This document shows positions 61,287 to 63,244 of a DNA stretch of 64,000 nt, in pieces. How positions within the stretch are numbered: position 1 is the stretch's first letter; every line of letters begins with the position of its first letter. The notes under the pieces were generated by a model, which saw nothing but the letters and a program-made list of their open reading frames with translations, ran no database searches and was not told where the DNA came from. The translations under genes were made by a program, and so were the position numbers. The DNA is from Petrotoga mexicana DSM 14811 (GTDB taxonomy: Bacteria > Thermotogota > Thermotogae > Petrotogales > Petrotogaceae), in NCBI RefSeq assembly GCF_002895565.1, contig NZ_AZRN01000006.1, positions 1 through 64,000 of the forward strand, written 5' to 3'.

Positions 61287-61835
61287 ATGGCTTTGAAGAT
61301 TGAAAGTGGCAAATTTAAGAATATTACTATAGAAACAGTTGATGATCGTAGGACAAGATACACGCCAGCTACTTTAAGAAGGGCTTTAATGAGCATTTTT
61401 GATTTTTCAGGTGCTAACTTTTTGGAGTTTTTTGCAGGTAGCGGCATAATGAGTTTTGAAGTTTTAAGTAATGGGGCAAAAAGCTCCACAATGGTGGATA
61501 TTTCGTCTAAAGCGGTGAGCTCGATTTTAAAAAACGCTGAATCTTTAGGGGTACTAAGTAATATAAAAGTTATAAAATCAGATTTTAGAAAATCTATTAC
61601 AAAACTTTCAGCCGAACAGTTTGATTACATATTTGCTGATCCACCATTTAATAATCATTATGTCCAAGAGTTTTTGAAATTCATAGATTCAAATATATCT
61701 TTAATTAGAAAAGGGGGCTATATCATTATTGAAAAACATAAAAATGAAAAAATTGATTATATACCCAAAAATTTGATTAGGGAAGAAGTAAGAGATTACG
61801 GTGATATTGAAATTCTAATCTTTTTTAAATCTTAA
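61287..61835 (+). CDS. rsmD: 16S rRNA (guanine966-N2)-methyltransferase, RsmD-like
   Basis: 182 residues. Class I methyltransferase: RYTPATLRRALMSIFDF (RsmD N-terminal signature), FLEFFAGSGIMSFEVLSNGA (SAM motif I), DYIFADPPFNNHY (catalytic DPPF). ATG start with GAGGTG upstream. Stop codon abuts the terminator shared with the candidate small RNA on the other strand. Confidence 0.9.
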   Translation: MALKIESGKFKNITIETVDDRRTRYTPATLRRALMSIFDFSGANFLEFFAGSGIMSFEVLSNGAKSSTMVDISSKAVSSILKNAESLGVLSNIKVIKSDFRKSITKLSAEQFDYIFADPPFNNHYVQEFLKFIDSNISLIRKGGYIIIEKHKNEKIDYIPKNLIREEVRDYGDIEILIFFKS

Positions 61836-61927
61836 AAAAAGGGCCTTAATAAGGCCCTAATTTGGAAATGAATTCTTCCGGGGACAGAACACTCCAGGAG
61901 GGAGGGTAACCTACAAAAGTGCTCTGT
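61834..61927 (-). ncRNA. Candidate small RNA with C-rich anti-Shine-Dalgarno loop
   Basis: Not a known family by eye. The unit has a promoter just upstream (TTGAGA-16-TATAAT). From the predicted start A61927 it begins a 10-bp stem: ACAGAGCACT (61918-61927) pairs with AGTGTTCTGT (61884-61893), one G-U. The 24-base loop contains CCCTCCCTCCT (61896-61906), complementary to Shine-Dalgarno sequences. It ends with hairpin GGGCCTT/AAGGCCC (61841-61857) and T7 (61834-61840). About 94 nt, no coding frame of note. Confidence 0.55.
61841..61857. terminator. Bidirectional hairpin between rsmD and the small RNA
   Basis: Stem GGGCCTT/AAGGCCC, loop AAT. T7 follows on the minus strand; the plus-strand T-run is weak. 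The minus direction therefore terminates better; it also lies 170 bases after the phosphatase gene. Confidence 0.75.
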
Positions 61928-61933
61928 AGAGAT

Positions 61934-61961
61934 ATTATACATCATGAAATTTTTTTCTCAA
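61934..61961 (-). promoter_or_regulatory. Promoter of the candidate small RNA
   Basis: Minus strand TTGAGA (61956-61961), 16-bp spacer, TATAAT (61934-61939). The predicted start at 61927 coincides with the first base of the stem. Confidence 0.5.
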
Positions 61962-61965
61962 AACC

Positions 61966-62020
61966 CAATTATAGGCAATTACTTTCAATTAATAGCGATT
62001 AAAGCCGTTTAACTCCATTT
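61966..62020. repeat. Phased short A/T repeats, second locus
   Basis: Imperfect units around ATTAAAGCCGTTTAAC and CCATTTAAG with about 10-bp spacing, preceded by AATTATAGGC. They are similar to 10548-10592 and lie between the phosphatase stop and the small-RNA promoter. Confidence 0.3.
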
Positions 62021-62023
62021 AAG

Positions 62024-63226
62024 TCAATAAATCTCAAAAATTGAAAAAATCTCATTATTTGATATTATATTTTTATCAAAGGGAACGTTGGAAAAAAGAG
62101 GTACATAATCTAATGTATGTCCAAAAGTGCCCCAATTTACACCTACAGGATCGTTTAATACATCATAAAAACTTCTAACCACAGACGATTGATAACTTAC
62201 ATTTTTTCCTGAATTCTTTGTATAGTAAAATTCTTTTTCTAAATCAAGTTTTAACCCTAATTTTTCTTGAAACTCTTCATAATTCTTAGATTGGTTAAAT
62301 GTACTTATCATCTTTTCATAAGAAAAAGCACTGGGTTGAAACTTATTAAGAGCTAAAAAACCATCACCTAAACTCAACCCACCCGTTGAATGATCTGCAG
62401 TCACTATGATCAAGGTATCTTGAGGATATTGCTTATAAAAATCGATAGCAACCTTCACTGCCTTGTCAAAATCTAATATTTCGTTTATCATTGAATAAGT
62501 ATCATGTGCATGTGCAGCGTGATCGATTCTTCCCCCTTCTATTAAAATGAAAAAAGGAGAACCATTAAATTTACTCAATGCATAATTTAACGTTTCTTCT
62601 AACGTTACTCTGTTTGGATCATCCGTTAAAAAGGGGAAATTCCCATAATATAACATAACAATTTCATCATCAAGAGACGGAATCCTATCAAGTGTTTCTG
62701 TGTAAAAATATCCGTACTCTTTTGTGTTGCTATCCTTAAGATAAGCTTTTCCTCCCCCTATGAAAAGATCAAAATTACTTTCTAAAAGATCTTGCGTTAT
62801 CTTTTGGTAATCTTTTCTATTTTCAACGAAAGCATAAGCACCCGCAGGGGTAGCATCAATGATGGTGTTGGTTGTTATGACACCAATTTTGTACCCTTGT
62901 TTTTTTAGTTCATAAGTAATGGGAAGTATTTTTTCATCATCAGGATTAATGTTTATTCTATCGTTGTAGGTTTTTTCTTTAGATAAAATTGCTGTTATGG
63001 CTCCTGCTGAATCCGTTACACCATTCATCGAAGAAGTTTCAACCATTCCATAGTAAGGTAATTCTAGGATGTGTAGTTGATCTGTGTATAAATATTGCTT
63101 ATACATATTAGATAACTGCATGTGTGGAATTCCCATTCCATCAGCTATAAACAAAAAAACATAGTCAAATGAAAAAGAAAGATAAACTAAAAGAGTAATG
63201 AGAAAAACCAACAAAATTTTTTTCAC
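62024..63226 (-). CDS. Secreted alkaline phosphatase (PhoA family)
   Basis: 400 residues with signal peptide (KKILLVFLITLLVYLSFSF). LFIADGMGIPHMQ carries the first metal Asp (D29), NGVTDSAGAITAIL the phosphoserine (S73), EGGRIDHAAHAHD the metal Glu/Asp/His and TADHSTGG the others. Hydrolyses phosphate monoesters outside the cytoplasm. Start GTG at 63226 with AAGGTG six bases upstream; an ATG at 63241 overlaps that site. No clear Pho-type regulator nearby. Confidence 0.92.
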   Translation of the reverse strand: MKKILLVFLITLLVYLSFSFDYVFLFIADGMGIPHMQLSNMYKQYLYTDQLHILELPYYGMVETSSMNGVTDSAGAITAILSKEKTYNDRININPDDEKILPITYELKKQGYKIGVITTNTIIDATPAGAYAFVENRKDYQKITQDLLESNFDLFIGGGKAYLKDSNTKEYGYFYTETLDRIPSLDDEIVMLYYGNFPFLTDDPNRVTLEETLNYALSKFNGSPFFILIEGGRIDHAAHAHDTYSMINEILDFDKAVKVAIDFYKQYPQDTLIIVTADHSTGGLSLGDGFLALNKFQPSAFSYEKMISTFNQSKNYEEFQEKLGLKLDLEKEFYYTKNSGKNVSYQSSVVRSFYDVLNDPVGVNWGTFGHTLDYVPLFSNVPFDKNIISNNEIFSIFEIY

Positions 63227-63244
63227 TTTTAACACCTTCATTGT

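What the first reader, a model, noticed from the sequence alone, without database searches (positions are those of the whole stretch)
61834..61961. Free-standing small RNA candidate with an anti-Shine-Dalgarno loop
A complete transcription unit can be read on the minus strand in a gap without genes: promoter TTGAGA-16-TATAAT, a start site exactly at a 10-bp stem, a loop with CCCTCCCTCCT, and an intrinsic terminator with T7. The loop is complementary to AGGAGG-type ribosome sites, as in the C-rich small RNAs of Firmicutes (RsaE type). It does not look like SRP RNA, tmRNA or a riboswitch I know. If real, it would be a global translational regulator candidate.
Basis: partly seen in the sequence, partly recalled or inferred. 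Interest (0 to 1): 0.75.

Follow-up and report, generated by a model that had tools for sequence, protein, structure and literature searches.

The report
Conserved C-rich-loop small RNA in Petrotogaceae
The window carries a real, strongly conserved small-RNA gene of about 95 nucleotides, limited to six related genera of heat-loving bacteria, whose exposed C-rich loop is shaped to pair with ribosome-binding sites of messenger RNAs, most plausibly to switch off a limited set of genes such as homocitrate synthase.

Summary
On the minus strand, TTGAGA-16-TATAAT, a ~95-nt transcript (10-bp stem, C-rich loop, CCCCGGAA linker, second hairpin) and an intrinsic terminator are all present. The unit is conserved as one copy in 12 of 103 Thermotogota genomes: every genome of six genera of the window's family, none of the other two genera or elsewhere in the phylum. 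The core keeps 77-98% identity while the DNA upstream of the promoter is near random and the neighbouring alkaline phosphatase falls to 42-47% protein identity. It always lies downstream of that gene. Rfam has no match, and SRP RNA lies elsewhere. Best reading: a new trans-acting sRNA family whose loop (UUACCCUCCCUCCU) blocks G-rich ribosome sites. "Global" regulator is not supported: perfect complements are not more common in carriers than in non-carriers. The best target is a NifV-type homocitrate synthase: all nine orthologues in carriers keep AGGAGGG[A/T]GGGU, fully complementary in seven, before a conserved hairpin. That site is also the likely ribosome site, so pairing is unproven. Transcription was not observed.

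The parts
61956..61961 (-). -35 box TTGAGA
   Evidence: TTGAGA in nine carrier genomes, TTGAAA in G009 and G006, TTGTAA in G008
61934..61939 (-). -10 box TATAAT
   Evidence: invariant in 12 of 12 carrier genomes, always 6 nt before the stem
61834..61927 (-). small RNA, about 94 nt, inferred start 61927 and inferred end in the T run
   Evidence: start and end inferred from promoter spacing and terminator, not measured
61884..61927 (-). stem-loop 1: 10-bp stem (61927-61918 with 61893-61884) closing the C-rich loop
   Evidence: 98.3% of cells paired in six distinct sequences against 33-62% for slid partners, one pair with changes on both sides
61896..61911 (-). loop GGUUACCCUCCCUCCU, anti-Shine-Dalgarno-like; UACCCUCCCUC invariant in all carriers
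   Evidence: apical UUACCCUC predicted unpaired at 37 and 58 C
61876..61883 (-). invariant linker CCCCGGAA
   Evidence: invariant in 12 of 12; its perfect complement occurs in G009 only in the RNA gene itself, so it is not an 8-nt seed in that genome
61864..61879 (-). stem-loop 2 (GGAAGAAUUCAUUUCC here); a hairpin of different sequence in the same position in G009, G006 and G008
   Evidence: weak and not in the centroid structure in G007 and G013
61834..61858 (-). intrinsic terminator AGGGCCUUAUUAAGGCCCU plus U tract, probably shared with convergent rsmD
   Evidence: a terminator-type hairpin in this position in every carrier, with different stem sequences
62024..63241 (-). alkaline phosphatase family gene directly upstream of the RNA in all 12 carriers
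   Evidence: PF00245, E 2.9e-47; stop to RNA start 81-136 nt in 11 genomes by automatic measure; for G005 the measure picked a wrong frame, but the gap sequence printed there contains the same end of the gene
61287..61835 (+). rsmD-like methyltransferase, convergent neighbour (only in the Petrotoga/G011/G007/G013 arrangement)
   Evidence: PF03602, E 2.2e-33; in G006, G008, G009 an O-antigen-ligase-family gene follows instead

Best explanation
It is the gene of a small trans-acting regulatory RNA, a family not in Rfam and confined to part of the family Petrotogaceae. Shown by sequence: its own promoter, a 5' stem that presents a C-rich loop, an invariant CCCCGGAA linker, a second hairpin and a terminator, all under strong purifying selection. 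Inferred: the loop pairs with G-rich ribosome sites of a limited set of mRNAs (best candidate nifV-type homocitrate synthase; further, exploratory candidates gltB, hom, metY, alr), blocks 30S binding and lowers their translation, possibly with the help of Hfq, which these genomes encode. The RNA may also form the 3' end of the alkaline phosphatase transcript, since no terminator-like site separates the two in the window.
For: One copy in 12 of 12 genomes of six genera, CM E-values 1e-11 to 1e-14. Core identity 77-98% while the spacer upstream of the promoter is at or below shuffled level for G009 and G006 and near it for G008, and the neighbouring protein is 42-47% identical there. TATAAT and its 6-nt distance to the stem invariant. 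Individual folds with z -2.9 to -6.3 for copies given with their 5' arm (L007 was folded without it and is not counted). Two different downstream gene contexts, so it is not the leader of one particular gene. Hfq in all 12 genomes tested, including ones without the RNA. All nine nifV orthologues found in carriers have AAAGGAGGG[A/T]GGGU in the leader, 12-13 nt fully complementary to the loop in seven of them, while the DNA upstream of it has diverged; duplex energy -26 to -33 kcal/mol against a best of -21.6 among 146 unselected leaders. The GGGU part of the site lies beyond what the usual 16S tail would pair with (inference from the standard 16S 3' end).
Against: No transcript has been measured. 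Targets other than nifV were chosen by complementarity, and nifV was found that way too, so their energies are partly circular; only the conservation is independent. The nifV site can be conserved simply as a strong ribosome site, and nifV is missing from three carriers (G006, G008, G009) that keep the loop unchanged. No enrichment of loop complements over non-carriers or over the reversed pattern. Stem covariation is thin: one pair with a double change. The invariance of CCCCGGAA is not explained by 8-nt target pairing.
Confidence: 0.68

Rival explanations
1. A structural or protein-binding RNA: the invariant C-rich loop and CCCCGGAA are a binding site for a protein (for example an RNA-binding regulator or a ribosome-associated factor), and the RNA titrates that protein instead of pairing with mRNAs.
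For: Loop and linker are more conserved than target pairing requires, and stay invariant in genomes without nifV; CCCCGGAA has no perfect complement elsewhere in G009; loop complements are not enriched.
Against: The loop is exactly of anti-SD type and is perfectly complementary to the conserved nifV leader in seven genomes; no known protein-binding RNA family matches. A CsrA sponge is unlikely: only one GGA is conserved.
Confidence: 0.17
2. A 3'-UTR element of the alkaline phosphatase mRNA: its main role is to end or stabilise that transcript, and the small RNA is only a by-product.
For: Linked to the alkaline phosphatase gene in all 12 genomes, with no terminator-like site between them in the window.
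Against: A promoter between the two is conserved, with TATAAT invariant and at fixed distance; a plain terminator would not need an invariant loop and linker.
Confidence: 0.1
3. A cis-acting leader (attenuator or riboswitch) of the following gene.
For: In G006, G008 and G009 the RNA lies upstream of an O-antigen-ligase-family gene on the same strand, whose ribosome site AGGAGGG is complementary to the loop in G008 and G009.
Against: In the window and eight relatives the next gene is convergent, so nothing lies directly downstream on that strand. A promoter-like stretch with an extended -10 follows the terminator in the other genomes, as it does in Marinitoga-type genomes, which lack the RNA (read by eye).
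Confidence: 0.04
4. Not expressed: a chance arrangement or a short coding gene.
For: No transcript data; a 37-codon frame overlaps (61832-61945).
Against: Conservation pattern. The 37-codon frame starts inside the promoter, upstream of the inferred RNA start; the frame through the conserved part is shifted by the one-base insertion in G008.
Confidence: 0.01

Closest known systems
RsaE/RoxS (Staphylococcus/Bacillus C-rich sRNA)
   Same: About 100 nt, own promoter and terminator, C-rich unpaired regions complementary to SD sequences; RoxS binds SD sites and inhibits translation (PMC5419742).
   Different: No Rfam match to that family even at E 10; one long C-rich loop on a 5' stem plus CCCCGGAA instead of several short C-rich regions; no Rex-type regulation shown; different phylum.
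FsrA and other C-rich Firmicutes sRNAs; Helicobacter RepG (C/U-rich loop)
   Same: C-rich pairing region aimed at G-rich leaders (own knowledge).
   Different: No sequence or structure relation shown; RepG uses its terminator loop (own knowledge), here the 5' loop is C-rich.
3'-UTR sRNAs of enterobacteria with their own promoter, e.g. MicL (own knowledge)
   Same: Own promoter at or behind the 3' end of a conserved gene and possibly a terminator shared with that gene's mRNA.
   Different: No link between the RNA's function and alkaline phosphatase is shown.
Bacterial small SRP RNA (4.5S)
   Same: Similar length.
   Different: A bona fide SRP RNA lies elsewhere in all ten genomes tested.

Membership tests
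RsaE/RoxS | matches the Rfam covariance model of the family | tested here: not met
   No RsaE hit among all Rfam families up to E 10 on 61700-62100
RsaE/RoxS | unpaired C-rich region complementary to SD sites | tested here: met
RsaE/RoxS | base-pairs with and represses SD-containing leaders in vivo | not testable with these tools
   needs an experiment
trans-acting sRNA (general kind) | own promoter and intrinsic terminator, no obligatory downstream gene in cis | tested here: met
   by sequence only:
trans-acting sRNA (general kind) | conserved unpaired pairing region and stem | tested here: met
trans-acting sRNA (general kind) | expressed as a discrete RNA | not testable with these tools
   no reads available
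trans-acting sRNA (general kind) | conserved complementary targets | tested here: inconclusive
   nifV leader 9 of 9 in carriers that have the gene (7 fully complementary, 2 with one mismatch), but indistinguishable from a conserved ribosome site, and no genome-wide enrichment
Bacterial small SRP RNA | matches RF00169 | tested here: not met
   no match here; RF00169 found elsewhere in 10 of 10 genomes
any Rfam 15 family | gathering-score match | tested here: not met
   only two tRNAs in the window
CsrA-sponge RNA (CsrB type) | several GGA motifs in loops | tested here: not met
   only the GGA of CCCCGGAA is conserved

The most novel reading that the evidence does not exclude
A clade-specific sRNA that controls amino-acid and nitrogen metabolism in Petrotogaceae: it recognises an unusual class of leader in which the ribosome site AGGAGGGAGGGU is set about 45-68 nt before the start codon and brought to it by a conserved hairpin (nifV in nine genomes, alr in one), as well as ordinary extended SD sites (gltB, hom, metY). 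It would be among the first mRNA-pairing sRNAs with a defined target described in Thermotogota.
Probability: 0.25. Interest if true: 0.72.

Novelty: new member of a known kind. Interest (0 to 1): 0.5.

Why it matters
Small RNAs of Thermotogota are almost undescribed: a 2022 review counts one sRNA for the phylum (PMC9029176), and the Thermotoga maritima transcriptome study found only 12-13 putative ncRNAs without definable structure (PMC3636130). A conserved, well-bounded sRNA gene with a testable target in thermophiles that have Hfq would let one ask whether base-pairing sRNA control of ribosome sites, known from Firmicutes and Proteobacteria, also works in this early-branching phylum at 50-60 C.

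Tried and rejected
Rfam at gathering score and at E 10: only weak hits far below the gathering scores, none convincing. SRP RNA: rejected, it lies elsewhere. That scan may leave out near relatives and did not return several known carriers, so absence outside the phylum is not proof. Divergent copy at the syntenic place in Marinitoga-type genomes: none. CCCCGGAA as an 8-nt seed: rejected for G009. Global SD regulator by enrichment of GGAGGGTAA or GAGGGNGGGT: not supported. Palindrome ATGAAATTTTTTTCAT as an operator near the promoter: one match in the window against 1.4 expected, not pursued. Peptide coded by the RNA: rejected, frame not conserved in G008.

Full report
Observation. The minus strand of 61834-61961 carries TTGAGA-16 nt-TATAAT, then six bases, then a 10-bp stem (ACAGAGCACT with AGUGUUCUGU), a loop containing GGUUACCCUCCCUCCU, CCCCGGAA, a small second hairpin and a G+C-rich terminator hairpin with a T run. 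The 95-nt RNA folds at -35.0 kcal/mol, z = -4.6 against dinucleotide shuffles. The neighbours are an alkaline phosphatase family gene upstream on the same strand (stop codon 96 nt before the RNA) and a convergent rsmD-like gene whose stop codon overlaps the end of the T run. No Rfam family matches.

Conservation. BLAST and a covariance model (R1, built on six distinct sequences) find exactly one copy in each of 12 genomes out of 103 searched in the phylum, all in the window's family: genera g1 to g5 and g7, but not g6 or g8, and nothing outside the family. 'Marinitoga-type' in this report means genus g6 on that basis. The core is 77-98% identical between the window and six other carriers. For G009 and G006 the spacer upstream of the promoter is at or below the shuffled level, for G008 just above it; the adjacent phosphatase is 42-47% identical in amino acids in these three. 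UACCCUCCCUC, CUGUCCCCGGAA and TATAAT are invariant. The stem stays paired in 98.3% of cells, against 33-62% for slid partners, with one doubly changed pair; shuffles reach this in 96 of 500, so covariation alone is weak. Hairpin 2 and the terminator recur with other sequences in G009, G006 and G008.

Gene order. In all 12 carriers the RNA follows the phosphatase gene. In the Petrotoga-like genomes the next gene is convergent rsmD; in G006, G008 and G009 it is an O-antigen-ligase-family gene on the same strand. So it is not the leader of a given gene, but it may also form the 3' end of the phosphatase mRNA. Upstream of that O-antigen-ligase-family gene in genera g6 and g8 there is no RNA.

Function. 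The loop resembles the 3' end of 16S rRNA and is predicted to be open in its apical part at 37 and 58 C. All 12 genomes tested, with or without the RNA, encode Hfq. Searching for long complements led to a NifV-type homocitrate synthase gene (NCBIfam nifV equivalog above cut-off), whose close orthologue is present in nine carriers and absent from the three others and from g6 and g8 genomes. All nine leaders hold AAAGGAGGG[A/T]GGGU; seven are fully complementary to the loop over 12-13 nt and two (G007, G013) have one mismatch. Between this site and the start codon lies a hairpin that stays paired (5 pairs, 100% of cells, one pair with a double change), so the site looks like a ribosome site bridged to its start by a hairpin. 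Duplex energies are -26 to -33 kcal/mol; the best of 146 unselected leaders reaches -21.6, and the 16S tail gives -14 to -18 on the same leaders. Other leaders with long complements are gltB in five Petrotoga genomes, hom in G003 and G007, an O-acetylhomoserine-sulfhydrylase-like gene in G011 and alr in G007 (apart from gltB named by eye from the protein starts). The amino-acid theme is exploratory, because these were selected by complementarity.

Limits. Long complements are not enriched in carriers over non-carriers or over reversed patterns in total (for GAGGGNGGGT the carriers have more hits than non-carriers, but the reversed control is about as frequent in carriers). The nifV site may be conserved as a ribosome site only. 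The linker CCCCGGAA is unexplained. No expression data were available.

Verdict. A real and new sRNA gene family of a known kind. Mode of action by pairing with G-rich ribosome sites is the best reading (about two in three); a broad, global role is not supported.

Noticed in passing
G000:C36:58300-58370 (L107:1511-1570) and L103, L084, L098, L166-L174: Leader of the NifV-type homocitrate synthase gene: invariant AAAGGAGGG[A/T]GGGU, then a hairpin with changing sequence, then roughly 6-11 nt to the start codon; no other ribosome site seen near the start. Looks like a hairpin-bridged Shine-Dalgarno arrangement conserved in nine genomes.
   Followed up: partly
L085 (G007:C1:257685, minus strand): An alanine-racemase-like gene has the same AGGAGGGAGGGU followed by a possible hairpin, about 68 nt before its start codon.
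   Followed up: no
61876-61883: CCCCGGAA is invariant in all carriers and contains the self-complementary CCGG; its function (dimer contact, protein site, tertiary contact) is unknown.
   Followed up: partly
61962-62023: Upstream of the -35 box a stretch of the type TGAAANTNATTTGCC recurs in the Petrotoga-like carriers; possible activator site or UP element.
   Followed up: no
L014 (G016, genus g6), about 1501-1532: The promoter of an ornithine-carbamoyltransferase-like gene resembles the sRNA promoter including its spacer (84% over 32 nt); probably a common strong-promoter type in the family.
   Followed up: no
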